NCBI GenBank assembly: GCA_903813345.2 | Contig: CAIIXF020000012.1 | Coordinates: 15,990,020 to 16,054,019, forward strand | Reading direction: 5' to 3' | DNA length: 64,000 nt | From: Owenia fusiformis | Taxonomy: Eukaryota > Annelida > Polychaeta > Sabellida > Oweniidae | Shown here: positions 3,440-28,680 of the stretch, one piece after another | Layout of the letters: every line of letters begins with the position of its first letter | Numbering within the stretch: the first letter of the stretch is position 1 | Translations under genes and position numbers: made by a program | Notes under the pieces: model-generated | The model's input: the letters and a program-made list of their open reading frames with translations, nothing else | The model's database searches: none | Told to the model about the DNA's origin: nothing

Positions 3440-6400
3440 AATTTAACTCAAGATTAATGTTTAGGGGTGCATCATTGTTAAATGATATTTTTAAATTCTC
3501 TATAGAATTACAAGTAATGAAATAATTTAGTGTATCAGAAACAGCTTCAATTATGTGATTTATCTGTAATTATTAATTTGGAGAAAAAACACTTGCAACA
3601 TATTTTCTCTGATTTACATAGAGTTATTCCTTATATTTCATGTAAAATGTGGACATTGAGAAGAATATATAAGAAACTTGTGGGCAAATGGAGCAAAGTA
3701 AAGCAAAAACTGAAAAAGTTCATGCATTTCATGGCAAAGTGTGGCGGCTAAATAAACAAATGCCAATTAAGAAAAGTAAACAAGTAAACAAACTCAGTAG
3801 GATATTTTGTTTAAATTTTGGCATATTAACATGTTAACTTGCAGTGTGAATTTGATCAGATTAGAAAATAATAAATTGCTATTTCAAGAAATTAATAAAA
3901 CATTTTTCTTGTTCTAGTAGAATTATTGGTCAAAAAATTGAAATAATTGAACAATTAAAAGAAAAATGTAATGACTCAGTTTAAATGTCCAAAGATTGAC
4001 TGAAAGCGTCAAGGTTCAGTTGAATAATGTCATTCACTTAAAACTACAGTTAGTACGTTAAACCCTAAACTACGGGTTCAACTATAGGTTCAATTTGATT
4101 ACATGTAAAACTCTCAACTAAGGGTTAACCTATAGGTTCAATTCGATTACATGTAAAACTCTCCCAACTACGGGTTCAACTATAGGTTCAATTCGATTAC
4201 ATGTAAAACCCTCAACTACAGGTTCAACTATAGGTTCAATTCATTTACATGTAAAACTCTCAACTACGGGTTCAACTATAGGTTCAATTCAATTATATGT
4301 AAAACTCTCAACTACGGGTTCAACTATAGGTTCTATTTTCAACTAAACTGGCAAACTACAGGTTCAACTAAATAACAAGTCAGCTTCAAACTACGGGTTC
4401 AACTATAGGTTCAATTGAGTAATACGTAGAATCATAAACTATGATTGAACAATTAAACCCTCAGTTTAAATGTCCAAAGATTGACTGAAAGCATCAAGGT
4501 TCAGTTGAATAATGCCATTCACCTAAAACTACAGTTAATACGTTAAACCCTCAACTACGGGTACAACTATAGGTTCAATTTGATTACATGTAAAACTCTC
4601 AACTAGGGGTTAAAAAAAATTTAACGACTCAGTTTAAATGTCCAAAGATTGACTGAAAGCATCAAGGTTCAGTTGAATAATGCCATTCACCTAAAACTAC
4701 AGTTAAAACTTTAAACCCTCAACTACTGGTTCAACTATAGGTTCAATTTGATTACATGTAAAACTCTCAACTAAGGGTTAACCTATAGGTTCAATTCGAT
4801 TACATGTTAAACTCTCCCAACTACGGGTTCAACTATAGGTTCAATTCGATTACATGTAAAACCCTCAACTACGGGTTCAACTATAGGTTCAATTCAATTA
4901 CATGTAAAACTCTCAACTACGGGTTCAACTATAGGTTCAATTCAATTATATGTAAAACTCTCAACTACGGGTTCTATTTTCAACTAAACTGGCAAACTAC
5001 AGGTTCAATTAAATAACAAGTTAGCTTCAAACTACAGGATCAACTATAGGTTCAATTGAGTAATATGTAGAACAATTAACTATGGGCTTAACTATAGGTT
5101 CAATTCGATTACATGTAAAACTCTCTCTCAACTACAGGTTCAACTATAGGTTCAATTGAACATGGGTTAATATGGGTTCAACTGTATTCCATTACATGTA
5201 AAACTCAACTACGGATTCAAATTTAACTCAAGATTAATGTTTAGGGGTGCATCATTGTTAAATGATATTTTTTAATTCTCTATAGAATTACAAGTAATGA
5301 AATAATTTAGTGTATCAGAAACAGCTTCAATTATGTGATTTATCTGTAATTATTAATTTGGAGAAAAAACACTTGCAACATATTTTCTCTGATTTACATA
5401 GAGTTATTCCTTATATCTCATGTAAAATGTGGACATTGAGAAGAATATATAAGAAACTTGTGGGCAAATGGAGCAAAGTAAAGCAAAAACTGAAAAAGTT
5501 CATGCATTTCATGGCAAAGTGTGGCTGCTAAATAAACAAATGCCAATTAAGAAAAGTAAACAAGTAAACAAACTCAGTAGGATATTTTGTTTAAATTTTG
5601 GCAAATTAACATGTTAACTTGCAGTGTGAATTTGATCAGATTAGAAAATAATAAATTGCTATTTTAAGAAATTAATAAAAACATTTTTCTTGTTCTAGTA
5701 GAATTATTGGTCTAAAAATTGAAATAATTGAACAATTAAAAGAAAAATGTAATGACTCAGTTTAAATGTCCAAAGATTGACTAAAAGCGTCAAGGTTCAG
5801 TTGAATAATGTCATTCACTTAAAACTACAGTTAGTATGTTAAACCCTCAACTATGGGTTCAACTATAGGTTCAATTGGATTACATGTAAAACTCTCAACT
5901 AAGGGTTAACCTATAGGTTCAATTCGATTACATGTAAAACTCTCCCAACTACGGGTTCAACTATAGGTTCAATTCGATTACATGTAAAACTCTCTCAACT
6001 ACAGGTTCAACTATAGGTTCAATTCAATTACATGTAAAACTCTCAACTACGGGTTCAACTATAGGTTCAATTCAATTATATGTAAAACTCTCAACTACGG
6101 GTTCAACTATAGGTTCTATTTTCAACTAAACTGGCAAAGTACAGGTTCAATTAAATAACAAGTTAGCTTCAAACTACGGGTTCAACTATAGGTTTAATTG
6201 AGTAATATGTAGAATCATAAACTACGATTGAACAATTAAAAGAAAAATGTAATGACTCAGTTTAAATGTCCAAAGATTGACTGAAAGCATCAAGGTTCAG
6301 TTGAATAATGCCATTCACCTAAAACTACAGTTAATACGTTAAACCCTCAACTACGGGTTCAACTATAGGTTCAATTTGATTACATGTAAAACTCTCAACT

Positions 6401-8246
6401 AAGGGTTAACCTATAGGTTCAATTCGATTACATGTAAAACTCTCCCAACTACGGGTTCAACTATATGTTCAATTCGATTACATGTAAAACCCTCAACTAC
6501 GGGTTCAACTATAGGTTCAATTCAATTACATGTAAAACTCTCAACTACGGGTTCAACTATAGGTCAATTCAATTATATGTAAAACTCTCAACTACGGGTT
6601 CTATTTTCAACTAAACTGGCAAACTACAGGTTCAATTAAATAACAAGTTAGCTTCAAACTACAGGTTCAACTATAGGTTCAATTGAGTAATATGTAGAAC
6701 CATTAACTACGGGCTTAACTATAGGTTTAATTCGATTACATGTAAAACTCTCTCTCAACTACAGGTTCAACTATAGGTTCAATTGAACATGGGTTAATAT
6801 GGGTTCAACTGTATTCCATTACATGTAAAACTCAACTACGGATTCAAATTTAACTCAAGATTAATGTTTAGGGGTGCATCATTGTTAAATGATATTTTTT
6901 AATTCTCTATAGAATTACAAGTAATGAAATAATTTAGTGTATCAGAAACAGCTTCAATTATGTGATTTATCTGTAATTATTAATTTGGAGAAAAAACACT
7001 TGCAACATATTTTCTCTGATTTACATAGAGTTATTCCTTATATTTCATGTAAAATGTGGACATTGAGAAGAATATATAAGAAACTTGTGGGCAAATGGAG
7101 CAAAGTAAAGCAAAAACTGAAAAAGTTCATGCATTTCATGGCAAAGTGTGGCGGCTAAATAAACAAATGCCAATTAAGAAAAGTAAACAAGTAAACAAAC
7201 TCAGTAGGATATTTTGTTTAAATTTTGGCATATTAACATGTTAACTTGCAGTGTGAATTTAATCAGATTAGAAAATAATAAATTGCCATTTCAAGAAATT
7301 AATAAAAACATTTTTCTTGTTCTAGTAGAATTATTGGTCAAAAAATTGAAATAATTGAACAATTAAAAGAAAAATGTAATGACTCAGTTTAAATGTCCAA
7401 AGATTGACTGAAAGCGTCAAGGTTCAGTTGAATAATGTCATTCACTTAAAACTACAGTTAGTACGTTAAACCCTCAACTACGGGTTCAACTATAGGTTCA
7501 ATTTGATTACATGTAAAACTCTCAACTAAGGGTTAACCTATAGGTTCAATTCGATTACATGTAAAACTCTCCCAACTACGGGTTCAACTATAGGTTCAAT
7601 TCGATTACATGTAAAACCCTCAACTACGGGTTCAACTATAGGTTCAATTCAATTACATGTAAAACTCTCAACTACGGGTTCAACTATAGGTCAATTCAAT
7701 TATATGTAAAACTCTCAACTACGGGTTCTATTTTCAACTAAACTGGCAAACTACAGGTTCAATTAAATAACAAGTTAGCTTCAAACTACAGGTTCAACTA
7801 TAGGTTCAATTGAGTAATATGTAGAACCATTAACTACGGGCTTAACTATAGGTTTAATTCGATTACATGTAAAACTCTCTCTCAACTACAGGTTCAACTA
7901 TAGGTTCAATTGAACATGGGTTAATATGGGTTCAACTGTATTCCATTACATGTAAAACTCAACTACGGATTCAAATTTAACTCAAGATTAATGTTTAGGG
8001 GTGCATCATTGTTAAATGATATTTTTTAATTCTCTATAGAATTACAAGTAATGAAATAATTTAGTGTATCAGAAACAGCTTCAATTATGTGATTTATCTG
8101 TAATTATTAATTTGGAGAAAAAACACTTGCAACATATTTTCTCTGATTTACATAGAGTTATTCCTTATATTTCATGTAAAATGTGGACATTGAGAAGAAT
8201 ATATAAGAAACTTGTGGGCAAATGGAGCAAAGTAAAGCAAAAACTT
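3440..8246 (+). repeat. Higher-order repeat carrying a 73-codon open module
   Basis: A non-satellite module starting near ACTCAAGATTAATGTTTAGG recurs at about 3440, 5220, 6850 and 7980; module spacings measured at the open frame are 1780, 1627 and 1127 bp. Each holds the same open stretch (3530, 5310, 6937, 8064) beginning VYQKQLQLCDLSVIINLEKK. The first codon is GTG, with an in-frame TGA four codons upstream and no ATG start, and the fourth copy is interrupted by satellite. The identity between copies is explained by recent block duplication, so this is treated as repeat, not gene. Confidence 0.75.
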
Positions 8247-9139
8247 ATAGCCAACAACAGGTTCAACTATATGTTCAATTCAATTACATGTAAAACTCTC
8301 AACTACGGGTTCAACTATAGGTTCAATTCAATGAATTATATGTAAAACTCTCAACTACGGGTTCAACTGGGGATTCTATTTTCAACTAAACTGGCAAACT
8401 ACAGGTTCAATTAAATAACAAGTTAGCTTCAAATGATGTGTTCAACTATAGGTTCTATTTTCAACTAAACTGGCAAACTACAGGTTCAATTAAATAACAA
8501 TTTAGCTTCAAACTACGGGTTCAACTATAGGTTCAATTGAATAATATGTAGAACCATTAACTACGGGTTCAACTATAGGTTCTATTCAATTACATGTAAA
8601 ACTCTCAACTACGGGTTTAACTATAGTTTCGATTCATTTACATGTAAAACTCTCAACTACGGGTTCTATTCAATTACATGTAAAAATCTCAACTACGGTT
8701 TCAACTATAGGTTCATTAAATAACATGTAAAACTCTGAACTACAGGTTCAACTATAGGTTCTATTCAGTTAAATGTAAAACTCTAAACTACGGGTTCAAC
8801 TATAGGTTCAATTTTCAACTAAACTGACAAACTATAGGTTCAATTATAGGTTCATTGAATAACATGTAAAACTCTCAACTACGGGTTCAACTATAGGTTC
8901 TATTCAATTAAATGTAAAACTCTAAACTAAGGGTTCAACTAAAGGTTCTATTTTCAACTAAACTGACAAACTATAGGTTCAATTATAGGTTCATTGAATG
9001 GCATGTAAAACTCTCAACTACGGGTTTAACTATAGATTCAATTCAATTACATGTTAAACTCTCAACTAAGGGTTCAACTATAGGTTCTATTCAATTACAT
9101 GTAAAAATCTCAACTACGGGTTCAACTATAGGTTCATTG

Positions 9140-10681
9140 AATAACATGTAAATCTCTCAACTACGGGTTCAACTATAGGTTCTATTCAGTTAAATGTAAA
9201 ACTCTAAACTACGGGTTCAACTATAGGTTCTATTTTCAACTAGGTTCAATTATAGGTTCATTGAATAACATGTAAAACTCTCAACTACGGGTTCAACTAT
9301 AGTTTCTATTCATTTAAATGTAAAACTCTAAACTACGGGTTCAACTATAGGTTCTATTTTCAACTAAACTGACAAACTATAGGTTCAATTATAGGTTCAT
9401 TGAATAACATGTAAAACTCTCAACTACGGGTTCAACTATAGGTTCTATTCAGTTAAATGTAAAACTCTAAACTACGGGTTCAACTATAGGTTCTATTTTC
9501 AACTAAACTGACAAACTATAGGTTCAATTATAGGTTCATTGAATAACATGTAAAACTCTCAACTACGGGTTCAACTATAGTTTCTATTCAATTAAATGTA
9601 AAACTCTAAACTACGGGTTCAACTATAGGTTCTATTTTCAACTAAACTGACAAACTATAGGTTCAATTATAGGTTCATTGAATAACATGTAAAACTCTCA
9701 ACTACGGGTTCAACTATAGGTTCTATTCAGTTAAATGTAAAACTCTAAACTACGGGTTCAACTATAGGTTCTGTTTTCAACTAAACTGACAAACTATAGG
9801 TTCAATTATAGGTTCATTGAATAACATGTAAAAATCCCAACTACGGGTTTAACTATAGGTTCTATTCAATTACATGTTAAACTCTCAACTACGGGTTCAA
9901 CTATAGGTTCATTGAATAACATGTAAATCTCTCAACTACGGGTTCAACTATAGGTTCTATTCAGTTAAATGTAAAACTCTAAACTACGGGTTCAACTATA
10001 GGTTCTATTTTCAACTAGGTTCAATTATAGGTTCATTGAATAACATGTAAAACTCTCAACTACGGGTTCAACTATAGTTTCTATTCATTTAAATGTAAAA
10101 CTCTAAACTACGGGTTCAACTATAGGTTCTATTTTCAACTAAACTGACAAACTATAGGTTCAATTATAGGTTCATTGAATAACATGTAAAACTCTCAACT
10201 ACGGGTTCAACTATAGGTTCTATTCAGTTAAATGTAAAACTCTAAACTACGGGTTCAACTATAGGTTCTATTTTCAACTAAACTGACAAACTATAGGTTC
10301 AATTATAGGTTCATTGAATAACATGTAAAACTCTCAACTACGGGTTCAACTATAGTTTCTATTCAATTAAATGTAAAACTCTAAACTACGGGTTCAACTA
10401 TAGGTTCTATTTTCAACTAAACTGACAAACTATAGGTTCAATTATAGGTTCATTGAATAACATGTAAAACTCTCAACTACGGGTTCAACTATAGGTTCTA
10501 TTCAGTTAAATGTAAAACTCTAAACTACGGGTTCAACTATAGGTTCTGTTTTCAACTAAACTGACAAACTATAGGTTCAATTATAGGTTCATTGAATAAC
10601 ATGTAAAAATCCCAACTACGGGTTTAACTATAGGTTCTATTCAATTACATGTTAAACTCTCAACTACGGGTTCAACTATAG
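9140..10681 (+). repeat. 775-bp block duplicated in tandem within the satellite arm
   Basis: The distinctive junction TTTTCAACTAGGTTCAATTA occurs twice, 775 bp apart (near 9234 and 10009). The order of sub-variants between them is the same, including the TCTGTTTTCAAC variant and the AAAAATCCCAACTACGGG variant, so two consecutive blocks are near-identical. The nested element begins just after the second block. Confidence 0.75.
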
Positions 10682-10685
10682 GTTC

Positions 10686-13600
10686 CAGCGGTGGCGGTAG
10701 GCATATATTTTTGTGAGTCATCATGACTCAGGTAGTTTCAAAAAAGTGAGTCACAAGAAAAAAAGTTGAGTCAAAGCTATAAAAGTGTTTTTCTTGAGTA
10801 AAAATGCATACAAAATGTAGAAACCACATACAAAATTTATTTTTTGATTTTGTGCATACCTTTTATTGTACTCTTATAGCACATTAACAACTAACAATTA
10901 ATTAATTAGGCAATTGCAAGAAAAATGTCACTATTAATCATCTGATTATCTGGTCCAGCGAGTCATGGGTGTGAATGGAGTGGGAGAGGAGTTTCTCCCT
11001 GTGTGGAGTTACACAAATTGGGGTCAAAGCGTTTCATGTTGAAATTCAACATTTTTGCAATCATTCCAAAGTCTCAAACGGCAATATAAGTCCGACCACA
11101 ATACTGGGCATCATTTAAATTGCATACGGTAGAATCTTGTAATTATAGCTGATCAAATGAAACCGAAAGTAGATTTGTTTTCATACCTAATTTATCATCA
11201 TTACCCCCCTTAATGTGCGATCGACTGGATTTTCATGTGCCCATTATCTATCTTCATAGGATCAGCTTCAGATCTAGTGAATCGAAGATCTTAACTTGAG
11301 GGAGTTAATTGAAAATACTTGGTGAAAACTTACGATAGATCGGTCACTGTGAGCACCATTGATAAACCTACTGCGCATTACATCTGCGCATGCTGATGAA
11401 GGGGACGGCTCAAGGGAACTTGCTAACTTAGCGAAGGAATTTTGCGAACTTGCGAAGGAAACTAAAGATTCGTAAATCTAGCGTGTGAACATTCAAGGGA
11501 AGATTGTATGCGGTAATTTAGATAAATATACAATCACTAAAGTCCTTAGAAGGGAGTATGAAATTAATAAATTATTGTTCAATGTTATGTTCGTTTTATT
11601 GCATTTTTGATACGCCCCCTAGCAACGTGCTTCATGAGATAAACAAATCGAGGGATCGATCAATGTTTTCAAGTTTATCAAGTTGAATCTGAATCGGGTC
11701 AATATAACCTACTTGAGATTTGTTTTGCTCATCGTATAGGAAAAGTAGTACTTAATACACTAGTTCGCTACTTTGTAGATGTATGGCACGTATATGTGTA
11801 CATGTATTGGCAATTAATGTTTGGTGATAGCTAGTAGGAGTGTCAGGGACCGCTGACAGATTATTATTTTGAACCCAAAAATTGAATTACATTTTTGGCG
11901 GTCTCAGTAAATCAATGGGGTAATCAGGTCCTACGTGCTTTTTACAGGCCCAGAAATCAATGCTCGCTTATAAATGTAGCAAAATCTTTTTTCGTTCGTG
12001 GGATATTTTTTTCACCATATAACCGAACGGGACGTTTTTGAATAGGACTACATGATCTGAATGGATGTGAGGATTCGATGGGCTGGGATTTGAGAAATTA
12101 TGATTTGAACTTTGCCAATTTTACATGTATTCCAATGGGTGAAAAAGTAAGTTGCTTTCTACCTAATATCAACCACATTTATTAGTGAATTTCGAGAAAT
12201 ATGTCGAATTTAGCCATATTTCGCATATCTTTCTATGGAACCATTTAAAGTTTTGCAAATTAACCCCTAAAATTCTGGAGACGACGATCTGAATTTTGCT
12301 GAGTCAGCAATTTTCGTTTTTTTCATTGAAAACAGTACTTTTCAGCCTAAATTGCTACATTTCTGCTCTCTTATCAAGTAATTTGATGCAGTTCTTGCCA
12401 AATTAAAGGAAACACACCCCAAACGTTCCAAAGTGTGCGAAGTTCCAACATTTTGACCCTTTAAACCCACGAAAGACCCAATTTTAAAGGGACGTATTCA
12501 GTAAACCTGCACAAAAGACAATGCTACTTGAACTAGCCATCAGAAGTTCATGAAAAACGAAAAATCAATGATGTTCAGTTTAGTAAAGTAGCAAATAGTC
12601 CTACTTATGAGAGAATATAAATCACTTAAGCAATTTGTACAACTTTAAACAGCTGTTTTAAGTAGATTAGTATCGTTATGGGCAAAAATCCCCCAAAATA
12701 GCCCAAAATTTGTCCAAAAATTCAAAATTTTCATGCTCAAGGCTGAATTATTTTGCCTATTTTGCTACATTTATCAGTGCAGTGACAAGAAGTCTTGTGG
12801 ATAGCGCAACTTTTCCTGAACGTTTCTCTAATAAGATATTTTGATGACAAAATAACTACATTTAGTCTGGAATAAATTGTCACAAAATATAATGACCCCA
12901 GGGGTCAAGAGAACCCTATAAAATCAAAAGTGCTGAGGGGATTTGAGCAAAAATGTACATATCACTTCATAAAACCCCGAACTTTAAAATTCATATTGAA
13001 TAAAATGCACATTCAGTCAACCATGACACTAATAGGGTCAATATAACCTACTTGAGATTTGTTTTGCTCATCGTATAGGAAAAGTAGTACTTAATACACT
13101 AGTTCGCTACTTTGTAGATGTATGGCACGTATATGTGTACATGTATTGGCAATTAATGTTTGGTGATAGCTAGTAGGAGTGTCAGGGACCGCTGACAGAT
13201 TATTATTTTGAACCCAAAAATTGAATTACATTTTTGGCGGTCTCAGTAAATCAATGGGGTAATCAGGTCCTACGTGCTTTTTACAGGCCCAGAAATCAAT
13301 GCTCGCTTATAAATGTAGCAAAATCTTTTTTCGTTCGTGGGATATTTTTTTCACCATATAACCGAACGGGACGTTTTTGAATAGGACTACATGATCTGAA
13401 TGGATGTGAGGATTCGATGGGCTGGGATTTGAGAAATTATGATTTGAACTTTGCCAATTTTACATGTATTCCAATGGGTGAAAAAGTAAGTTGCTTTCTA
13501 CCTAATATCAACCACATTTATTAGTGAATTTCGAGAAATATGTCGAATTTAGCCATATTTCGCATATCTTTCTATGGAACCATTTAAAGTTTTGCAAATT

Positions 13601-16600
13601 AACCCCTAAAATTCTGGAGACGACGATCTGAATTTTGCTGAGTCAGCAATTTTCGTTTTTTCATTGAAAACAGTACTTTTCAGCCTAAATTGCTACATTT
13701 CTGCTCTCTTATCAAGTAATTTGATGCAGTTCTTGCCAAATTAAAGGAAACACACCCCAAACGTTCCAAAGTGTGCGAAGTTCCAACATTTTGACCCTTT
13801 AAACCCACGAAAGACCCAATTTTAAAGGGACGTATTCAGTAAACCTGCACAAAAGACAATGCTACTTGAACTAGCCATCAGAAGTTCATGAAAAACGAAA
13901 AATCAATGATGTTCAGTTTAGTAAAGTAGCAAATAGTCCTACTTATGAGAGAATATAAATCACTTAAGCAATTTGTACAACTTTAAACAGCTGTTTTAAG
14001 TAGATTAGTATCGTTATGGGCAAAAATCCCCCAAAATAGCCCAAAATTTGTCCAAAAATTCAAAATTTTCATGCTCAAGGCTGAATTATTTTGCCTATTT
14101 TGCTACATTTATCAGTGCAGTGACAAGAAGTCTTGTGGATAGCGCAACTTTTCCTGAACGTTTCTCTAATAAGATATTTTGATGACAAAATAACTACATT
14201 TAGTCTGGAATAAATTGTCACAAAATATAATGACCCCAGGGGTCAAGAGAACCCTATAAAATCAAAAGTGCTGAGGGGATTTGAGCAAAAATGTACATAT
14301 CACTTCATAAAACCCCGAACTTTAAAATTCATATTGAATAAAATGCACATTCAGTCAACCATGACACTAATAGGGTCAATATAACCTACTTGAGATTTGT
14401 TTTGCTCATCGTATAGGAAAAGTAGTACTTAATACACTAGTTCGCTACTTTGTAGATGTATGGCACGTATATGTGTACATGTATTGGCAATTAATGTTTG
14501 GTGATAGCTAGTAGGAGTGTCAGGGACCGCTGACAGATTATTATTTTGAACCCAAAAATTGAATTACATTTTTGGCGGTCTCAGTAAATCAATGGGGTAA
14601 TCAGGTCCTACGTGCTTTTTACAGGCCCAGAAATCAATGCTCGCTTATAAATGTAGCAAAATCTTTTTTCGTTCGTGGGATATTTTTTTCACCATATAAC
14701 CGAACGGGACGTTTTTGAATAGGACTACATGATCTGAATGGATGTGAGGATTCGATGGGCTGGGATTTGAGAAATTATGATTTGAACTTTGCCAATTTTA
14801 CATGTATTCCAATGGGTGAAAAAGTAAGTTGCTTTCTACCTAATATCAACCACATTTATTAGTGAATTTCGAGAAATATGTCGAATTTAGCCATATTTCG
14901 CATATCTTTCTATGGAACCATTTAAAGTTTTGCAAATTAACCCCTAAAATTCTGGAGACGACGATCTGAATTTTGCTGAGTCAGCAATTTTCGTTTTTTC
15001 ATTGAAAACAGTACTTTTCAGCCTAAATTGCTACATTTCTGCTCTCTTATCAAGTAATTTGATGCAGTTCTTGCCAAATTAAAGGAAACACACCCCAAAC
15101 GTTCCAAAGTGTGCGAAGTTCCAACATTTTGACCCTTTAAACCCACGAAAGACCCAATTTTAAAGGGACGTATTCAGTAAACCTGCACAAAAGACAATGC
15201 TACTTGAACTAGCCATCAGAAGTTCATGAAAAACGAAAAATCAATGATGTTCAGTTTAGTAAAGTAGCAAATAGTCCTACTTATGAGAGAATATAAATCA
15301 CTTAAGCAATTTGTACAACTTTAAACAGCTGTTTTAAGTAGATTAGTATCGTTATGGGCAAAAATCCCCCAAAATAGCCCAAAATTTGTCCAAAAATTCA
15401 AAATTTTCATGCTCAAGGCTGAATTATTTTGCCTATTTTGCTACATTTATCAGTGCAGTGACAAGAAGTCTTGTGGATAGCGCAACTTTTCCTGAACGTT
15501 TCTCTAATAAGATATTTTGATGACAAAATAACTACATTTAGTCTGGAATAAATTGTCACAAAATATAATGACCCCAGGGGTCAAGAGAACCCTATAAAAT
15601 CAAAAGTGCTGAGGGGATTTGAGCAAAAATGTACATATCACTTCATAAAACCCCGAACTTTAAAATTCATATTGAATAAAATGCACATTCAGTCAACCAT
15701 GACACTAATAGGGTCAATATAACCTACTTGAGATTTGTTTTGCTCATCGTATAGGAAAAGTAGTACTTAATACACTAGTTCGCTACTTTGTAGATGTATG
15801 GCACGTATATGTGTACATGTATTGGCAATTAATGTTTGGTGATAGCTAGTAGGAGTGTCAGGGACCGCTGACAGATTATTATTTTGAACCCAAAAATTGA
15901 ATTACATTTTTGGCGGTCTCAGTAAATCAATGGGGTAATCAGGTCCTACGTGCTTTTTACAGGCCCAGAAATCAATGCTCGCTTATAAATGTAGCAAAAT
16001 CTTTTTTCGTTCGTGGGATATTTTTTTCACCATATAACCGAACGGGACGTTTTTGAATAGGACTACATGATCTGAATGGATGTGAGGATTCGATGGGCTG
16101 GGATTTGAGAAATTATGATTTGAACTTTGCCAATTTTACATGTATTCCAATGGGTGAAAAAGTAAGTTGCTTTCTACCTAATATCAACCACATTTATTAG
16201 TGAATTTCGAGAAATATGTCGAATTTAGCCATATTTCGCATATCTTTCTATGGAACCATTTAAAGTTTTGCAAATTAACCCCTAAAATTCTGGAGACGAC
16301 GATCTGAATTTTGCTGAGTCAGCAATTTTCGTTTTTTCATTGAAAACAGTACTTTTCAGCCTAAATTGCTACATTTCTGCTCTCTTATCAAGTAATTTGA
16401 TGCAGTTCTTGCCAAATTAAAGGAAACACACCCCAAACGTTCCAAAGTGTGCGAAGTTCCAACATTTTGACCCTTTAAACCCACGAAAGACCCAATTTTA
16501 AAGGGACGTATTCAGTAAACCTGCACAAAAGACAATGCTACTTGAACTAGCCATCAGAAGTTCATGAAAAACGAAAAATCAATGATGTTCAGTTTAGTAA

Positions 16601-19600
16601 AGTAGCAAATAGTCCTACTTATGAGAGAATATAAATCACTTAAGCAATTTGTACAACTTTAAACAGCTGTTTTAAGTAGATTAGTATCGTTATGGGCAAA
16701 AATCCCCCAAAATAGCCCAAAATTTGTCCAAAAATTCAAAATTTTCATGCTCAAGGCTGAATTATTTTGCCTATTTTGCTACATTTATCAGTGCAGTGAC
16801 AAGAAGTCTTGTGGATAGCGCAACTTTTCCTGAACGTTTCTCTAATAAGATATTTTGATGACAAAATAACTACATTTAGTCTGGAATAAATTGTCACAAA
16901 ATATAATGACCCCAGGGGTCAAGAGAACCCTATAAAATCAAAAGTGCTGAGGGGATTTGAGCAAAAATGTACATATCACTTCATAAAACCCCGAACTTTA
17001 AAATTCATATTGAATAAAATGCACATTCAGTCAACCATGACACTAATAGGGTCAATATAACCTACTTGAGATTTGTTTTGCTCATCGTATAGGAAAAGTA
17101 GTACTTAATACACTAGTTCGCTACTTTGTAGATGTATGGCACGTATATGTGTACATGTATTGGCAATTAATGTTTGGTGATAGCTAGTAGGAGTGTCAGG
17201 GACCGCTGACAGATTATTATTTTGAACCCAAAAATTGAATTACATTTTTGGCGGTCTCAGTAAATCAATGGGGTAATCAGGTCCTACGTGCTTTTTACAG
17301 GCCCAGAAATCAATGCTCGCTTATAAATGTAGCAAAATCTTTTTTCGTTCGTGGGATATTTTTTTCACCATATAACCGAACGGGACGTTTTTGAATAGGA
17401 CTACATGATCTGAATGGATGTGAGGATTCGATGGGCTGGGATTTGAGAAATTATGATTTGAACTTTGCCAATTTTACATGTATTCCAATGGGTGAAAAAG
17501 TAAGTTGCTTTCTACCTAATATCAACCACATTTATTAGTGAATTTCGAGAAATATGTCGAATTTAGCCATATTTCGCATATCTTTCTATGGAACCATTTA
17601 AAGTTTTGCAAATTAACCCCTAAAATTCTGGAGACGACGATCTGAATTTTGCTGAGTCAGCAATTTTCGTTTTTTCATTGAAAACAGTACTTTTCAGCCT
17701 AAATTGCTACATTTCTGCTCTCTTATCAAGTAATTTGATGCAGTTCTTGCCAAATTAAAGGAAACACACCCCAAACGTTCCAAAGTGTGCGAAGTTCCAA
17801 CATTTTGACCCTTTAAACCCACGAAAGACCCAATTTTAAAGGGACGTATTCAGTAAACCTGCACAAAAGACAATGCTACTTGAACTAGCCATCAGAAGTT
17901 CATGAAAAACGAAAAATCAATGATGTTCAGTTTAGTAAAGTAGCAAATAGTCCTACTTATGAGAGAATATAAATCACTTAAGCAATTTGTACAACTTTAA
18001 ACAGCTGTTTTAAGTAGATTAGTATCGTTATGGGCAAAAATCCCCCAAAATAGCCCAAAATTTGTCCAAAAATTCAAAATTTTCATGCTCAAGGCTGAAT
18101 TATTTTGCCTATTTTGCTACATTTATCAGTGCAGTGACAAGAAGTCTTGTGGATAGCGCAACTTTTCCTGAACGTTTCTCTAATAAGATATTTTGATGAC
18201 AAAATAACTACATTTAGTCTGGAATAAATTGTCACAAAATATAATGACCCCAGGGGTCAAGAGAACCCTATAAAATCAAAAGTGCTGAGGGGATTTGAGC
18301 AAAAATGTACATATCACTTCATAAAACCCCGAACTTTAAAATTCATATTGAATAAAATGCACATTCAGTCAACCATGACACTAATAGGGTCAATATAACC
18401 TACTTGAGATTTGTTTTGCTCATCGTATAGGAAAAGTAGTACTTAATACACTAGTTCGCTACTTTGTAGATGTATGGCACGTATATGTGTACATGTATTG
18501 GCAATTAATGTTTGGTGATAGCTAGTAGGAGTGTCAGGGACCGCTGACAGATTATTATTTTGAACCCAAAAATTGAATTACATTTTTGGCGGTCTCAGTA
18601 AATCAATGGGGTAATCAGGTCCTACGTGCTTTTTACAGGCCCAGAAATCAATGCTCGCTTATAAATGTAGCAAAATCTTTTTTCGTTCGTGGGATATTTT
18701 TTTCACCATATAACCGAACGGGACGTTTTTGAATAGGACTACATGATCTGAATGGATGTGAGGATTCGATGGGCTGGGATTTGAGAAATTATGATTTGAA
18801 CTTTGCCAATTTTACATGTATTCCAATGGGTGAAAAAGTAAGTTGCTTTCTACCTAATATCAACCACATTTATTAGTGAATTTCGAGAAATATGTCGAAT
18901 TTAGCCATATTTCGCATATCTTTCTATGGAACCATTTAAAGTTTTGCAAATTAACCCCTAAAATTCTGGAGACGACGATCTGAATTTTGCTGAGTCAGCA
19001 ATTTTCGTTTTTTCATTGAAAACAGTACTTTTCAGCCTAAATTGCTACATTTCTGCTCTCTTATCAAGTAATTTGATGCAGTTCTTGCCAAATTAAAGGA
19101 AACACACCCCAAACGTTCCAAAGTGTGCGAAGTTCCAACATTTTGACCCTTTAAACCCACGAAAGACCCAATTTTAAAGGGACGTATTCAGTAAACCTGC
19201 ACAAAAGACAATGCTACTTGAACTAGCCATCAGAAGTTCATGAAAAACGAAAAATCAATGATGTTCAGTTTAGTAAAGTAGCAAATAGTCCTACTTATGA
19301 GAGAATATAAATCACTTAAGCAATTTGTACAACTTTAAACAGCTGTTTTAAGTAGATTAGTATCGTTATGGGCAAAAATCCCCCAAAATAGCCCAAAATT
19401 TGTCCAAAAATTCAAAATTTTCATGCTCAAGGCTGAATTATTTTGCCTATTTTGCTACATTTATCAGTGCAGTGACAAGAAGTCTTGTGGATAGCGCAAC
19501 TTTTCCTGAACGTTTCTCTAATAAGATATTTTGATGACAAAATAACTACATTTAGTCTGGAATAAATTGTCACAAAATATAATGACCCCAGGGGTCAAGA

Positions 19601-22600
19601 GAACCCTATAAAATCAAAAGTGCTGAGGGGATTTGAGCAAAAATGTACATATCACTTCATAAAACCCCGAACTTTAAAATTCATATTGAATAAAATGCAC
19701 ATTCAGTCAACCATGACACTAATAGGGTCAATATAACCTACTTGAGATTTGTTTTGCTCATCGTATAGGAAAAGTAGTACTTAATACACTAGTTCGCTAC
19801 TTTGTAGATGTATGGCACGTATATGTGTACATGTATTGGCAATTAATGTTTGGTGATAGCTAGTAGGAGTGTCAGGGACCGCTGACAGATTATTATTTTG
19901 AACCCAAAAATTGAATTACATTTTTGGCGGTCTCAGTAAATCAATGGGGTAATCAGGTCCTACGTGCTTTTTACAGGCCCAGAAATCAATGCTCGCTTAT
20001 AAATGTAGCAAAATCTTTTTTCGTTCGTGGGATATTTTTTTCACCATATAACCGAACGGGACGTTTTTGAATAGGACTACATGATCTGAATGGATGTGAG
20101 GATTCGATGGGCTGGGATTTGAGAAATTATGATTTGAACTTTGCCAATTTTACATGTATTCCAATGGGTGAAAAAGTAAGTTGCTTTCTACCTAATATCA
20201 ACCACATTTATTAGTGAATTTCGAGAAATATGTCGAATTTAGCCATATTTCGCATATCTTTCTATGGAACCATTTAAAGTTTTGCAAATTAACCCCTAAA
20301 ATTCTGGAGACGACGATCTGAATTTTGCTGAGTCAGCAATTTTCGTTTTTTCATTGAAAACAGTACTTTTCAGCCTAAATTGCTACATTTCTGCTCTCTT
20401 ATCAAGTAATTTGATGCAGTTCTTGCCAAATTAAAGGAAACACACCCCAAACGTTCCAAAGTGTGCGAAGTTCCAACATTTTGACCCTTTAAACCCACGA
20501 AAGACCCAATTTTAAAGGGACGTATTCAGTAAACCTGCACAAAAGACAATGCTACTTGAACTAGCCATCAGAAGTTCATGAAAAACGAAAAATCAATGAT
20601 GTTCAGTTTAGTAAAGTAGCAAATAGTCCTACTTATGAGAGAATATAAATCACTTAAGCAATTTGTACAACTTTAAACAGCTGTTTTAAGTAGATTAGTA
20701 TCGTTATGGGCAAAAATCCCCCAAAATAGCCCAAAATTTGTCCAAAAATTCAAAATTTTCATGCTCAAGGCTGAATTATTTTGCCTATTTTGCTACATTT
20801 ATCAGTGCAGTGACAAGAAGTCTTGTGGATAGCGCAACTTTTCCTGAACGTTTCTCTAATAAGATATTTTGATGACAAAATAACTACATTTAGTCTGGAA
20901 TAAATTGTCACAAAATATAATGACCCCAGGGGTCAAGAGAACCCTATAAAATCAAAAGTGCTGAGGGGATTTGAGCAAAAATGTACATATCACTTCATAA
21001 AACCCCGAACTTTAAAATTCATATTGAATAAAATGCACATTCAGTCAACCATGACACTAATAGGGTCAATATAACCTACTTGAGATTTGTTTTGCTCATC
21101 GTATAGGAAAAGTAGTACTTAATACACTAGTTCGCTACTTTGTAGATGTATGGCACGTATATGTGTACATGTATTGGCAATTAATGTTTGGTGATAGCTA
21201 GTAGGAGTGTCAGGGACCGCTGACAGATTATTATTTTGAACCCAAAAATTGAATTACATTTTTGGCGGTCTCAGTAAATCAATGGGGTAATCAGGTCCTA
21301 CGTGCTTTTTACAGGCCCAGAAATCAATGCTCGCTTATAAATGTAGCAAAATCTTTTTTCGTTCGTGGGATATTTTTTTCACCATATAACCGAACGGGAC
21401 GTTTTTGAATAGGACTACATGATCTGAATGGATGTGAGGATTCGATGGGCTGGGATTTGAGAAATTATGATTTGAACTTTGCCAATTTTACATGTATTCC
21501 AATGGGTGAAAAAGTAAGTTGCTTTCTACCTAATATCAACCACATTTATTAGTGAATTTCGAGAAATATGTCGAATTTAGCCATATTTCGCATATCTTTC
21601 TATGGAACCATTTAAAGTTTTGCAAATTAACCCCTAAAATTCTGGAGACGACGATCTGAATTTTGCTGAGTCAGCAATTTTCGTTTTTTCATTGAAAACA
21701 GTACTTTTCAGCCTAAATTGCTACATTTCTGCTCTCTTATCAAGTAATTTGATGCAGTTCTTGCCAAATTAAAGGAAACACACCCCAAACGTTCCAAAGT
21801 GTGCGAAGTTCCAACATTTTGACCCTTTAAACCCACGAAAGACCCAATTTTAAAGGGACGTATTCAGTAAACCTGCACAAAAGACAATGCTACTTGAACT
21901 AGCCATCAGAAGTTCATGAAAAACGAAAAATCAATGATGTTCAGTTTAGTAAAGTAGCAAATAGTCCTACTTATGAGAGAATATAAATCACTTAAGCAAT
22001 TTGTACAACTTTAAACAGCTGTTTTAAGTAGATTAGTATCGTTATGGGCAAAAATCCCCCAAAATAGCCCAAAATTTGTCCAAAAATTCAAAATTTTCAT
22101 GCTCAAGGCTGAATTATTTTGCCTATTTTGCTACATTTATCAGTGCAGTGACAAGAAGTCTTGTGGATAGCGCAACTTTTCCTGAACGTTTCTCTAATAA
22201 GATATTTTGATGACAAAATAACTACATTTAGTCTGGAATAAATTGTCACAAAATATAATGACCCCAGGGGTCAAGAGAACCCTATAAAATCAAAAGTGCT
22301 GAGGGGATTTGAGCAAAAATGTACATATCACTTCATAAAACCCCGAACTTTAAAATTCATATTGAATAAAATGCACATTCAGTCAACCATGACACTAATA
22401 GGGTCAATATAACCTACTTGAGATTTGTTTTGCTCATCGTATAGGAAAAGTAGTACTTAATACACTAGTTCGCTACTTTGTAGATGTATGGCACGTATAT
22501 GTGTACATGTATTGGCAATTAATGTTTGGTGATAGCTAGTAGGAGTGTCAGGGACCGCTGACAGATTATTATTTTGAACCCAAAAATTGAATTACATTTT

Positions 22601-25600
22601 TGGCGGTCTCAGTAAATCAATGGGGTAATCAGGTCCTACGTGCTTTTTACAGGCCCAGAAATCAATGCTCGCTTATAAATGTAGCAAAATCTTTTTTCGT
22701 TCGTGGGATATTTTTTTCACCATATAACCGAACGGGACGTTTTTGAATAGGACTACATGATCTGAATGGATGTGAGGATTCGATGGGCTGGGATTTGAGA
22801 AATTATGATTTGAACTTTGCCAATTTTACATGTATTCCAATGGGTGAAAAAGTAAGTTGCTTTCTACCTAATATCAACCACATTTATTAGTGAATTTCGA
22901 GAAATATGTCGAATTTAGCCATATTTCGCATATCTTTCTATGGAACCATTTAAAGTTTTGCAAATTAACCCCTAAAATTCTGGAGACGACGATCTGAATT
23001 TTGCTGAGTCAGCAATTTTCGTTTTTTCATTGAAAACAGTACTTTTCAGCCTAAATTGCTACATTTCTGCTCTCTTATCAAGTAATTTGATGCAGTTCTT
23101 GCCAAATTAAAGGAAACACACCCCAAACGTTCCAAAGTGTGCGAAGTTCCAACATTTTGACCCTTTAAACCCACGAAAGACCCAATTTTAAAGGGACGTA
23201 TTCAGTAAACCTGCACAAAAGACAATGCTACTTGAACTAGCCATCAGAAGTTCATGAAAAACGAAAAATCAATGATGTTCAGTTTAGTAAAGTAGCAAAT
23301 AGTCCTACTTATGAGAGAATATAAATCACTTAAGCAATTTGTACAACTTTAAACAGCTGTTTTAAGTAGATTAGTATCGTTATGGGCAAAAATCCCCCAA
23401 AATAGCCCAAAATTTGTCCAAAAATTCAAAATTTTCATGCTCAAGGCTGAATTATTTTGCCTATTTTGCTACATTTATCAGTGCAGTGACAAGAAGTCTT
23501 GTGGATAGCGCAACTTTTCCTGAACGTTTCTCTAATAAGATATTTTGATGACAAAATAACTACATTTAGTCTGGAATAAATTGTCACAAAATATAATGAC
23601 CCCAGGGGTCAAGAGAACCCTATAAAATCAAAAGTGCTGAGGGGATTTGAGCAAAAATGTACATATCACTTCATAAAACCCCGAACTTTAAAATTCATAT
23701 TGAATAAAATGCACATTCAGTCAACCATGACACTAATAGGGTCAATATAACCTACTTGAGATTTGTTTTGCTCATCGTATAGGAAAAGTAGTACTTAATA
23801 CACTAGTTCGCTACTTTGTAGATGTATGGCACGTATATGTGTACATGTATTGGCAATTAATGTTTGGTGATAGCTAGTAGGAGTGTCAGGGACCGCTGAC
23901 AGATTATTATTTTGAACCCAAAAATTGAATTACATTTTTGGCGGTCTCAGTAAATCAATGGGGTAATCAGGTCCTACGTGCTTTTTACAGGCCCAGAAAT
24001 CAATGCTCGCTTATAAATGTAGCAAAATCTTTTTTCGTTCGTGGGATATTTTTTTCACCATATAACCGAACGGGACGTTTTTGAATAGGACTACATGATC
24101 TGAATGGATGTGAGGATTCGATGGGCTGGGATTTGAGAAATTATGATTTGAACTTTGCCAATTTTACATGTATTCCAATGGGTGAAAAAGTAAGTTGCTT
24201 TCTACCTAATATCAACCACATTTATTAGTGAATTTCGAGAAATATGTCGAATTTAGCCATATTTCGCATATCTTTCTATGGAACCATTTAAAGTTTTGCA
24301 AATTAACCCCTAAAATTCTGGAGACGACGATCTGAATTTTGCTGAGTCAGCAATTTTCGTTTTTTCATTGAAAACAGTACTTTTCAGCCTAAATTGCTAC
24401 ATTTCTGCTCTCTTATCAAGTAATTTGATGCAGTTCTTGCCAAATTAAAGGAAACACACCCCAAACGTTCCAAAGTGTGCGAAGTTCCAACATTTTGACC
24501 CTTTAAACCCACGAAAGACCCAATTTTAAAGGGACGTATTCAGTAAACCTGCACAAAAGACAATGCTACTTGAACTAGCCATCAGAAGTTCATGAAAAAC
24601 GAAAAATCAATGATGTTCAGTTTAGTAAAGTAGCAAATAGTCCTACTTATGAGAGAATATAAATCACTTAAGCAATTTGTACAACTTTAAACAGCTGTTT
24701 TAAGTAGATTAGTATCGTTATGGGCAAAAATCCCCCAAAATAGCCCAAAATTTGTCCAAAAATTCAAAATTTTCATGCTCAAGGCTGAATTATTTTGCCT
24801 ATTTTGCTACATTTATCAGTGCAGTGACAAGAAGTCTTGTGGATAGCGCAACTTTTCCTGAACGTTTCTCTAATAAGATATTTTGATGACAAAATAACTA
24901 CATTTAGTCTGGAATAAATTGTCACAAAATATAATGACCCCAGGGGTCAAGAGAACCCTATAAAATCAAAAGTGCTGAGGGGATTTGAGCAAAAATGTAC
25001 ATATCACTTCATAAAACCCCGAACTTTAAAATTCATATTGAATAAAATGCACATTCAGTCAACCATGACACTAATAGGGTCAATATAACCTACTTGAGAT
25101 TTGTTTTGCTCATCGTATAGGAAAAGTAGTACTTAATACACTAGTTCGCTACTTTGTAGATGTATGGCACGTATATGTGTACATGTATTGGCAATTAATG
25201 TTTGGTGATAGCTAGTAGGAGTGTCAGGGACCGCTGACAGATTATTATTTTGAACCCAAAAATTGAATTACATTTTTGGCGGTCTCAGTAAATCAATGGG
25301 GTAATCAGGTCCTACGTGCTTTTTACAGGCCCAGAAATCAATGCTCGCTTATAAATGTAGCAAAATCTTTTTTCGTTCGTGGGATATTTTTTTCACCATA
25401 TAACCGAACGGGACGTTTTTGAATAGGACTACATGATCTGAATGGATGTGAGGATTCGATGGGCTGGGATTTGAGAAATTATGATTTGAACTTTGCCAAT
25501 TTTACATGTATTCCAATGGGTGAAAAAGTAAGTTGCTTTCTACCTAATATCAACCACATTTATTAGTGAATTTCGAGAAATATGTCGAATTTAGCCATAT

Positions 25601-28507
25601 TTCGCATATCTTTCTATGGAACCATTTAAAGTTTTGCAAATTAACCCCTAAAATTCTGGAGACGACGATCTGAATTTTGCTGAGTCAGCAATTTTCGTTT
25701 TTTCATTGAAAACAGTACTTTTCAGCCTAAATTGCTACATTTCTGCTCTCTTATCAAGTAATTTGATGCAGTTCTTGCCAAATTAAAGGAAACACACCCC
25801 AAACGTTCCAAAGTGTGCGAAGTTCCAACATTTTGACCCTTTAAACCCACGAAAGACCCAATTTTAAAGGGACGTATTCAGTAAACCTGCACAAAAGACA
25901 ATGCTACTTGAACTAGCCATCAGAAGTTCATGAAAAACGAAAAATCAATGATGTTCAGTTTAGTAAAGTAGCAAATAGTCCTACTTATGAGAGAATATAA
26001 ATCACTTAAGCAATTTGTACAACTTTAAACAGCTGTTTTAAGTAGATTAGTATCGTTATGGGCAAAAATCCCCCAAAATAGCCCAAAATTTGTCCAAAAA
26101 TTCAAAATTTTCATGCTCAAGGCTGAATTATTTTGCCTATTTTGCTACATTTATCAGTGCAGTGACAAGAAGTCTTGTGGATAGCGCAACTTTTCCTGAA
26201 CGTTTCTCTAATAAGATATTTTGATGACAAAATAACTACATTTAGTCTGGAATAAATTGTCACAAAATATAATGACCCCAGGGGTCAAGAGAACCCTATA
26301 AAATCAAAAGTGCTGAGGGGATTTGAGCAAAAATGTACATATCACTTCATAAAACCCCGAACTTTAAAATTCATATTGAATAAAATGCACATTCAGTCAA
26401 CCATGACACTAATAGGGTCAATATAACCTACTTGAGATTTGTTTTGCTCATCGTATAGGAAAAGTAGTACTTAATACACTAGTTCGCTACTTTGTAGATG
26501 TATGGCACGTATATGTGTACATGTATTGGCAATTAATGTTTGGTGATAGCTAGTAGGAGTGTCAGGGACCGCTGACAGATTATTATTTTGAACCCAAAAA
26601 TTGAATTACATTTTTGGCGGTCTCAGTAAATCAATGGGGTAATCAGGTCCTACGTGCTTTTTACAGGCCCAGAAATCAATGCTCGCTTATAAATGTAGCA
26701 AAATCTTTTTTCGTTCGTGGGATATTTTTTTCACCATATAACCGAACGGGACGTTTTTGAATAGGACTACATGATCTGAATGGATGTGAGGATTCGATGG
26801 GCTGGGATTTGAGAAATTATGATTTGAACTTTGCCAATTTTACATGTATTCCAATGGGTGAAAAAGTAAGTTGCTTTCTACCTAATATCAACCACATTTA
26901 TTAGTGAATTTCGAGAAATATGTCGAATTTAGCCATATTTCGCATATCTTTCTATGGAACCATTTAAAGTTTTGCAAATTAACCCCTAAAATTCTGGAGA
27001 CGACGATCTGAATTTTGCTGAGTCAGCAATTTTCGTTTTTTCATTGAAAACAGTACTTTTCAGCCTAAATTGCTACATTTCTGCTCTCTTATCAAGTAAT
27101 TTGATGCAGTTCTTGCCAAATTAAAGGAAACACACCCCAAACGTTCCAAAGTGTGCGAAGTTCCAACATTTTGACCCTTTAAACCCACGAAAGACCCAAT
27201 TTTAAAGGGACGTATTCAGTAAACCTGCACAAAAGACAATGCTACTTGAACTAGCCATCAGAAGTTCATGAAAAACGAAAAATCAATGATGTTCAGTTTA
27301 GTAAAGTAGCAAATAGTCCTACTTATGAGAGAATATAAATCACTTAAGCAATTTGTACAACTTTAAACAGCTGTTTTAAGTAGATTAGTATCGTTATGGG
27401 CAAAAATCCCCCAAAATAGCCCAAAATTTGTCCAAAAATTCAAAATTTTCATGCTCAAGGCTGAATTATTTTGCCTATTTTGCTACATTTATCAGTGCAG
27501 TGACAAGAAGTCTTGTGGATAGCGCAACTTTTCCTGAACGTTTCTCTAATAAGATATTTTGATGACAAAATAACTACATTTAGTCTGGAATAAATTGTCA
27601 CAAAATATAATGACCCCAGGGGTCAAGAGAACCCTATAAAATCAAAAGTGCTGAGGGGATTTGAGCAAAAATGTACATATCACTTCATAAAACCCCGAAC
27701 TTTAAAATTCATATTGAATAAAATGCACATTCAGTCAACCATGACACTAATAGGGTCAATATAACCTACTTGAGATTTGTTTTGCTCATCGTATAGGAAA
27801 AGTAGTACTTAATACACTAGTTCGCTACTTTGTAGATGTATGGCACGTATATGTGTACATGTATTGGCAATTAATGTTTGGTGATAGCTAGTAGGAGTGT
27901 CAGGGACCGCTGACAGATTATTATTTTGAACCCAAAAATTGAATTACATTTTTGGCGGTCTCAGTAAATCAATGGGGTAATCAGGTCCTACGTGCTTTTT
28001 ACAGGCCCAGAAATCAATGCTCGCTTATAAATGTAGCAAAATCTTTTTTCGTTCGTGGGATATTTTTTTCACCATATAACCGAACGGGACGTTTTTGAAT
28101 AGGACTACATGATCTGAATGGATGTGAGGATTCGATGGGCTGGGATTTGAGAAATTATGATTTGAACTTTGCCAATTTTACATGTATTCCAATGGGTGAA
28201 AAAGTAAGTTGCTTTCTACCATCACGGGGCTTTAAAAATTATAAGAAATACCGAAATGAGAAAATGATCGGTAGGAAGGAGGCTCGATTGCGCTGAACGA
28301 AATGTTAGATTTCCGGAATTAGCAAAATTATAAATTTGATCAATCACGTATTTTCACGTATAGGGATCAATTTAACCAAGTACCAAGCGGGGATTTTGCA
28401 TGTGAAACAAACGTGCGTCAGAAAGACTCGGTAGACAATGAATATTTGCGTCAGAGTTGCAAAAATGTGAGTAAAAAACGTAAAAAATTGCGTTAACGCC
28501 ACCTCTG
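10686..28507. mobile_element. Nested 17.8-kb TIR element carrying a 1338-bp satellite
   Basis: The left end reads CAGCGGTGGCGGTA and the right end, on the minus strand, reads CAGAGGTGGCGTTA (12 of 14 match). It is flanked by GTTC on both sides. Joining the flanks at one GTTC restores the host monomer (CTATAGGTTCTATTCAATTA), so the insertion is clean and younger than the surrounding satellite. Contents: about 1.0 kb of unique left sequence with repeated GAGTCA words, the 1338-bp array (11696-28220), then 287 bp of unique right sequence. No transposase frame is seen. A CAGxGGTGG terminus is hAT-like, but the 4-bp duplication is not the usual 8 bp, so the family is open. Confidence 0.7.
11696..28220 (+). 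repeat. Tandem array: 12.35 copies of a 1338-bp unit
   Basis: Units begin GGGTCAATATAACCTACTTG at 11696, 13035, 14373, 15711, 17049, 18387, 19725, 21063, 22401, 23739, 25077, 26415 and 27753. The last is cut at 28220 after 468 bp. The first unit is 1339 bp because of one extra T in a T-run near 12320; every later spacing is exactly 1338. All lines compared by eye were identical. The unit has no frame of 60 codons on either strand. Inside it are TGTCAG-GGACCG-CTGACA and GACCCC-A-GGGGTC inverted repeats, and the word TGCTACATTT recurs. Near-zero divergence means very recent amplification, ongoing homogenisation, or an assembly effect. Confidence 0.95.
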
Positions 28508-28680
28508 GTTCTATTCAATTACATGTTAAACTTTCAACTACGGGTTCAACTATAGGTTCAATTCAATTACATGTAAAGCTCTCAACTACAGGTTCAACTA
28601 TAGCTTCAATTACTTGTAAAACTTTCAACTACAGGTTAAATTTTCTACTATATACAGCTTTAACTACAGGTTCATGGATG
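28508..28680 (+). repeat. Distal remnant of the right satellite arm
   Basis: Two to three monomers of the GGTTCAACTATAGG satellite resume directly after the nested element and run into the right TIR, confirming that the nested element split a pre-existing array. Confidence 0.8.

What the first reader, a model, noticed from the sequence alone, without database searches (positions are those of the whole stretch)
10686..28507. A TIR element that carries a 16.5-kb near-identical 1338-bp satellite
Thirteen unit starts are spaced exactly 1338 bp apart except the first (1339, one extra T), and no other difference was seen by eye. The array is bounded by unique element sequence and matching 14-bp ends, so the satellite belongs inside a mobile element. 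No open frame explains conservation, so the identity implies very recent rolling-circle or unequal-exchange growth. Known tandem-core elements (such as the bivalve pearl/Helentron family) have shorter units and no such TIRs.
Basis: partly seen in the sequence, partly recalled or inferred. Interest (0 to 1): 0.85.

Follow-up and report, generated by a model that had tools for sequence, protein, structure and literature searches.

The report
Transposon-ended satellite nested in transposon
A 16.5-kb run of near-identical repeats turns out to be a tandem-amplified mobile element that landed inside an unrelated transposon; relatives of it, from single copies to a run of about 63 kb, sit at many other places in the same genome and suggest how jumping DNA can seed satellite DNA.

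Summary
The array is real (13 x 468-bp A alternating with 12 x 870-bp B, 11696-28220, one 1-bp difference), but it is not part of the TIR element. That 1.29-kb element has 48 other full copies examined, none with the array, and empty copies show that the array inserted with a 3-bp target duplication (ATC). The A/B modules occur across the genome without these TIRs: solo A, A-B-A, A-B-B-A and arrays up to about 63 kb. Of 33 loci with both sides read, 28 have an exact 3-bp duplication, including all 7 arrays of four or more A tested. The target consensus C|TNA|G and GG-starting ends match the NuwaII group of PIF/Harbinger-like (PHIS) DNA transposons. Best reading: A is a NuwaII-type non-autonomous transposon; two copies flanking B form a composite A-B-A that moves by its outermost ends and expands by recombination between A copies. 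In some arrays A is missing exactly at a 5-bp TAATA repeat, giving B-B (93 junctions, 6 loci). The layout mimics tandem TRIMs (TDRx_I(x-1)), but LTR-type ends, primer site and purine tract were not found. No transposase partner was found. New variant of a known kind.

The parts
10686..11695 (+). Left part of host TIR element (ends CAGCGGTGGCG..), a separate repeat family of about 1.29 kb
   Evidence: 40 scored matches (capped); 48 distinct full copies, 32 with exactly 5-bp target duplication
28221..28507 (+). Right part of host TIR element (..CGCCACCTCTG)
11693..11695 (+). Left copy of 3-bp target duplication ATC of the array
   Evidence: empty-site comparison
28221..28223 (+). Right copy of 3-bp target duplication ATC
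11696..12163 (+). A module 1 of 13 (468 bp, GGGTCAATATAACC..AAGTTGCTTTCTACC); its left end is the outer left end of the composite
12164..13034 (+). B module 1 of 12 (871 bp, one extra T)
13035..27752 (+). A modules 2-12 and B modules 2-12, alternating, period 1338; 12 B-A and 12 A-B junctions, 0 B-B in the whole window
27753..28220 (+). A module 13 of 13; its right end is the outer right end of the composite
8510..10685 (+). 48-bp tandem repeat into which the TIR element was inserted (left side)
   Evidence: flanks printed
28508..28637 (+). The same 48-bp tandem repeat, right side

Best explanation
The feature is a composite DNA transposon of the form A-(B-A)n, here n = 12, inserted into a copy of an unrelated TIR element, which itself sits in a 48-bp tandem repeat. 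A (468 bp) is a non-autonomous element that inserts like the NuwaII group of the PHIS (PIF/Harbinger-like) superfamily: 3-bp target duplication, target C|TNA|G, ends starting GG. Two A copies around an 870-bp stretch B form a unit moved by its outermost ends, presumably by a transposase encoded elsewhere. Once inserted, the direct A repeats let the unit grow or shrink by unequal recombination: solo A, A-B-A, and arrays up to about 63 kb. In some arrays A is missing at the TAATA that flanks it, leaving exact B-B. Shown: nesting, module structure, duplications, target consensus, local homogeneity, B-B junctions. Inferred: the transposase class, origin by double insertion, growth in place, and loss of A by precise excision or deletion.
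For: Nesting: 48 distinct full host copies, 0 with A/B; A/B in 2 of 60 fetched host loci, both the window's own; empty junction in 9 printed copies and ATC duplication. Modules elsewhere: 180 A left ends and 248 A right ends at up to 2 mismatches, 0 in the reversed-pattern controls. Target duplications: 13 of 13 loci, including 7 arrays of four or more A; 13 of 17; the A-B-B-A at C8 (TAT, read by eye); the deletion derivative at C5:3.47M (ATG); not C3:11.95M: 28 of 33 in all. Target consensus over 26 sites: C 17, T 18, N, A 15, G 17 (uncorrected binomial p 5e-8, 2e-4, 8e-3, 5e-8 against the window's base composition), matching C|TNA|G and GG-starting TIRs of NuwaII in PMC4482050 (section 8). 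Weak TIR: 10 of 17 positions, shuffle p 0.004, length 17 chosen after seeing the match; same pattern in a 3154-bp relative with TCT duplication. The derivative at C5:3.47M keeps 16 bp of the left A end. Local amplification: at C9:7.20M, 16 of 17 listed A starts share one variant start with 1336/1337 spacing, and the first A lacks it; the two A copies of a locus share variants. B-B: 93 matches, all exact though 2 mismatches were allowed, in 6 A-bearing loci.
Against: TIRs are imperfect and short. In the one long relative, the 2240 of 3154 bases scanned show no frame of 90 aa or more. 5 of 33 loci lack the duplication: C6:39.95M has 1 bp, C1:36.56M has 2 bp, at C5:42.19M and C6:40.53M the left side read was B and not an outer end, and C3:11.95M has 17 bp of B tail left of A and no duplication. 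The window's own duplication, ATC, is off consensus. TAATA around inner A copies is 5 bp, not 3. One A-B-A copy (L074) has 4 extra bases at the B-A junction. Reads were not available, so the unit count rests on the assembly.
Confidence: 0.72

Rival explanations
1. A tandem TRIM: a small non-autonomous LTR retrotransposon in which A is the terminal direct repeat and B the internal domain, multiplied as TDRx_I(x-1).
For: Same layout, including solo repeats and arrays; biv-TRIM reaches TDR58_I57 (PMC6934838, passages) and Cassandra forms long arrays (PMC7215508, passages). The two A copies at a locus share variants, as LTRs would.
Against: A runs GGG..ACC, not TG..CA; a primer-site start TGG does not occur in the first 72 bases after A, and in the opposite reading it first occurs after 11 bases; no purine tract is seen before A in either reading (judged by eye). 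Duplications are 3 bp with a C|TNA|G target. B-B junctions without A are not part of the TRIM pattern as I know it.
Confidence: 0.12
2. Rolling-circle or circle-based amplification: A-B circles are amplified outside the chromosome and multimers are inserted through A ends.
For: Units within an array are nearly identical; whole arrays have clean 3-bp duplications; variable A:B ratio.
Against: The edge A differs from the inner ones at C9:7.20M, and neighbouring units share length variants at C9:14.83M and C7, as expected for growth in place. Helitron-type insertion gives no target duplication (recalled).
Confidence: 0.2
3. One reading: a TIR element that carries its own satellite.
For: The array lies between matching TIRs in this copy.
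Against: 0 of 48 other full copies carry it; empty junction with a duplication; modules elsewhere without these TIRs.
Confidence: 0.02
4. Assembly expansion of one or two units.
For: The array is nearly perfect and reads were not available.
Against: Nine loci, the window included, have four or more A with differing lengths and A:B patterns (for C10 the A copies are inferred from B spacing and the two ends). Variants private to a locus are seen where sequence was read and at C9:7.20M. The unit count may still be off.
Confidence: 0.05

Closest known systems
NuwaII group of the PHIS (PIF/Harbinger-like) DNA transposons (PMC4482050)
   Same: 3-bp duplication, C|TNA|G target, ends starting GG (section 8 read)
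   Different: No transposase in A, B or the composite; TIRs imperfect; composite with internal tandem units
Tandem TRIM retroelements: biv-TRIM (PMC6934838), Cassandra (PMC7215508)
   Same: Repeat-internal-repeat units multiplied as TDRx_I(x-1), with solo repeats (passages read)
   Different: No primer site, purine tract or TG..CA found; 3-bp C|TNA|G duplications; B-B junctions; 1338-bp unit against TRIMs under 1000 bp
CMITE tandem arrays in corals (PMC2872659)
   Same: Non-autonomous DNA transposons in tandem (abstract and section 16 read)
   Different: Related to piggyBac; described as arrays of full-sized MITEs rather than of an element plus a second module
TE dimers seeding satellites (McGurk and Barbash, as cited in review PMC12628747, passages read; the term double insertion for their model is recalled)
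   Same: Two nearby insertions supply direct repeats for expansion
   Different: Here the expanded arrays still have both outer ends and target duplications
Helitron/Helentron elements with central tandem repeats (review PMC12628747, passages read)
   Same: Satellite units inside a mobile element
   Different: Clean 3-bp target duplications, whole-unit direct terminal repeats

Membership tests
NuwaII (PHIS superfamily) | 3-bp target duplication | tested here: met
   28 of 33 loci; empty site in window
NuwaII (PHIS superfamily) | target C|TNA|G | tested here: met
   C 17, T 18, A 15, G 17 of 26 sites; the window's own site is off consensus
NuwaII (PHIS superfamily) | TIRs of 13-46 bp, most starting GG | tested here: inconclusive
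   both ends start GG; 10 of 17 match, shuffle p 0.004
NuwaII (PHIS superfamily) | autonomous member with DDE transposase and Myb/SANT protein | tested here: inconclusive
   150 DDE_Tnp_4 matches scored in the genome; none within 20 kb of listed A ends (partial lists); long relative only partly read; Myb/SANT not searched
TRIM / LTR retrotransposon | primer binding site after the left repeat and purine tract before the right repeat | tested here: not met
   sequences next to A in both readings, judged by eye and by TGG position; no tRNA comparison was run
TRIM / LTR retrotransposon | TDRx_I(x-1) tandem layout with solo repeats | tested here: met
   window 13 A and 12 B; solo A at C1:10.0M; 26 of 37 loci from the first 100 listed right ends have one end
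TRIM / LTR retrotransposon | repeat ends TG..CA and 4-6-bp duplication (recalled) | tested here: not met
   GGG..ACC and 3 bp
Helitron/Helentron | no target duplication (recalled) | tested here: not met
   3-bp duplications
Hammerhead retrozyme / Penelope-like repeat | self-cleaving ribozyme motif (recalled) | tested here: not met
   Rfam scan of window 26700-28520 at E up to 5: only a sub-threshold snoRNA hit
Satellite carried by the CAG..CTG TIR element | array present in other copies of the element | tested here: not met
   0 of 48 distinct full copies; A/B in 2 of 60 fetched loci, both the window's own

The most novel reading that the evidence does not exclude
Whole satellite arrays of tens of kilobases are themselves transposable: in an A-(B-A)n array any A left end can pair with any downstream A right end, so one array is a nested set of composite transposons that sheds solo A, A-B-A and longer blocks to new C|TNA|G sites, where they regrow. 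The satellite is then mobile, not only transposon-derived.
Probability: 0.3. Interest if true: 0.75.

Novelty: new variant of a known kind. Interest (0 to 1): 0.5.

Why it matters
How dispersed transposons turn into satellite DNA is usually inferred from decayed remains. Here one genome shows what look like the steps side by side, most of the recent copies about 99% identical: solo element, composite with one internal unit, a two-unit form, and arrays of about 4.5 to 63 kb, the seven with both ends read still having outer ends and target duplications. It is also a DNA-transposon counterpart of tandem TRIMs, and it warns that TDRx_I(x-1) layout alone does not identify an LTR element.

Tried and rejected
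LTR/TRIM reading: rejected as membership for lack of primer site, purine tract and TG..CA, and for the C|TNA|G target. Ribozyme-bearing retroelements: no Rfam match. Search for an autonomous partner: 136 of 150 DDE_Tnp_4 places (the rest were mostly second pieces of the same places) against 84 typed A-end places, 0 within 20 kb. Variant right ends (7 matches, control 0) and variant left ends (37 matches against 34 in the reversed control, so mostly chance) gave one pair, C8:95523-98676, non-coding as far as read. Two early probes for the empty junction (end) found nothing because they were badly placed; it was read by coordinates. A print was off by one base and my first notebook entry speaks of an extra G at the left edge; one search shows there is none. 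Host species: I guessed Owenia fusiformis from genome size and what look like 12 large contigs; not tested, and the listing showed no paper with that name. Literature searches. None of their listings showed a description of NuwaII-type elements forming A-(B-A)n arrays; only 2 papers hold the word NuwaII, of which I read parts of one, and the library lacks most subscription papers. Seen: PMC2872659 abstract and section 16; PMC4482050 passages and section 8; PMC4561436 abstract; PMC2836001, PMC7215508, PMC6934838, PMC12628747 passages only. LTR end and duplication rules, the PIF target site and helitron rules are recalled.
Full report
Observation. The window holds 16,525 bp of tandem units at 11696-28220. 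In register with copies elsewhere, the unit splits into A (468 bp) and B (870 bp): 13 A and 12 B, with 12 B-A and 12 A-B junctions and no B-B. The only difference between units is one T in a T-run of the first B; the same column has the extra T in two other loci (L011, L074), so it may be homopolymer noise. No frame of 70 aa or more exists in the two pieces scanned.

It is not the TIR element's satellite. Of the 60 loci fetched with them, only the window's own two hold A or B; 48 distinct full copies could be delimited, median length about 1.29 kb, none with A or B, and 32 have exactly 5-bp target duplications (40 have 5 to 7 bp, 8 fewer). Nine empty copies printed around the junction read GAATC|AC(A or G)GGG, whereas the window reads GAATC, array, ATCACGGGG. 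The array is therefore a separate insertion with a 3-bp duplication, ATC. The TIR element in turn interrupts a 48-bp tandem repeat, so three repeats are nested.

The modules are a genome-wide family. In the 498-Mb genome, A left ends match 180 times and A right ends 248 times at up to 2 mismatches, with none in the reversed controls. A search with an older-looking left end gave 79 matches at up to 2 mismatches. The first 100 listed right ends fall into 37 loci: 26 with one end, 6 with two, 5 with 4 to 20 (the list was cut at 100 of 248, covers C1-C7 only, and cuts the C7 array short). Loci with at least four A are C1:17.64-17.70M (62.9 kb), C1:41.89-41.94M (45.8 kb), C7:3.53M (28.5 kb), C5:37.2M (20.6 kb), C9:14.83M, C9:7.20M, C10:22.80M, C2:9.57M (4.5 kb) and the window (at C10 the A copies are inferred from B spacing). 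All 57 B matches listed lie in loci where the lists or fetched ends also show A; that list holds only the best-scoring matches.

Ends and targets. Both sides were read for 33 loci, chosen because both ends were known from the listings or fetched loci. 28 have exact 3-bp duplications: 13 of 13 (7 of these are arrays of four or more A), 13 of 17, one A-B-B-A (TAT, read by eye from the output) and one internal-deletion derivative (ATG). The five misses: C6:39.95M with 1 bp, C1:36.56M with 2 bp, C5:42.19M and C6:40.53M where the left side proved to be B, and C3:11.95M, where A has 17 bp of B tail on its left and no duplication. A few further loci were read on the left side only and are not counted. 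Over 26 sites the base before the duplication is C in 17, the first base T in 18, the last A in 15, and the base after G in 17 (p values). This is C|TNA|G, which PMC4482050 gives as the target of NuwaII, with TIRs of 13-46 bp that mostly start GG (section 8). A's ends start GG on both sides and match at 10 of 17 positions (shuffle p 0.004; length chosen after seeing the match). A 3154-bp relative at C8:95523-98676 has the same end pattern and a TCT duplication.

Which part moves. At C5:3.47M the element is 16 bp of A's left end, then B from about 279, then a full A, still flanked by ATG. The stretch between the duplications thus runs from the first A start to the last A end, as in a composite element whose outer ends count. 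Whether the inner deletion came before or after insertion is not known.

How it grows. Units are identical within the window array apart from the T, and the seven B copies compared in L012 show the same variants, while B differs by about 1% between loci. At C9:7.20M, 16 of 17 listed A starts carry the same changed start with spacing 1336 or 1337, and the first A does not: one founder unit was multiplied and the edge was spared. Length variants cluster in neighbours at C9:14.83M (three in a row) and C7. Both A copies in A-B-A loci share variants (L010, L074) and differ from each other at few columns in the four loci compared. Growth in place by unequal exchange between A copies explains these; amplification before insertion is not excluded.

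B-B. In six loci A is missing between some B copies; all 93 such junctions match the searched 25-mer exactly, with a single TAATA where B-A-B has one on each side. Numbers of B between A vary from 1 to 12. PIF/Harbinger elements are reported to excise precisely by duplication-derived microhomology (PMC4561436 abstract; 109 of 110 events in PMC2836001, passage). Loss of A by excision is thus natural for this class, but a deletion between TAATA repeats, or one event that spread, fits as well.

Origin. Two A insertions around a stretch B would give A-B-A at once, in line with the transposon-dimer route to satellites cited in PMC12628747 (passages). I saw no B without A, but only the best B matches were listed, so the source of B is open.

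Membership. It inserts like a NuwaII-type element. I do not file it as a proven member, because no transposase partner was found. It has the layout of tandem TRIMs, but fails the primer-site, purine-tract and end tests.

Verdict. It is a new variant of a known kind.

Noticed in passing
window 10686-11695 and 28221-28507; L014-L072: A 1.29-kb non-autonomous TIR family (CAGCGGTGGCG..CGCCACCTCTG) with mostly 5-bp target duplications; scored copies match the window's left part at 95-99%. I could not assign its superfamily.
   Followed up: partly
window 47245-47871 and 57397-58089, minus strand: Two near-identical frames matching the N-terminal part of cytochrome P450, about 10 kb apart: looks like a recent tandem duplication.
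   Followed up: no
L080 (C5:37207700-37208340): Right of the C5 array lies a diverged A relative that ends CTTTCCATC and is followed by TGA, the same three bases as both array flanks, as if a related element shares or was targeted at that site.
   Followed up: no
G000 C9:7202394-7223772: Array of at least 17 A starts in which every listed A but the first has the same altered start and the spacing is 1336/1337.
   Followed up: partly
G000 C8:95523-98676, minus strand: 3154-bp relative with A-like ends and TCT duplication; no frame of 90 aa or more in the 2240 bases scanned.
   Followed up: partly
window 60905-63389, 56237-56895, 39013-39468: Further tandem arrays of about 183, 86 and 65 bp.
   Followed up: no
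window 1920-8538: Many separate blocks of the 48-bp repeat, in both orientations, between other sequence.
   Followed up: no
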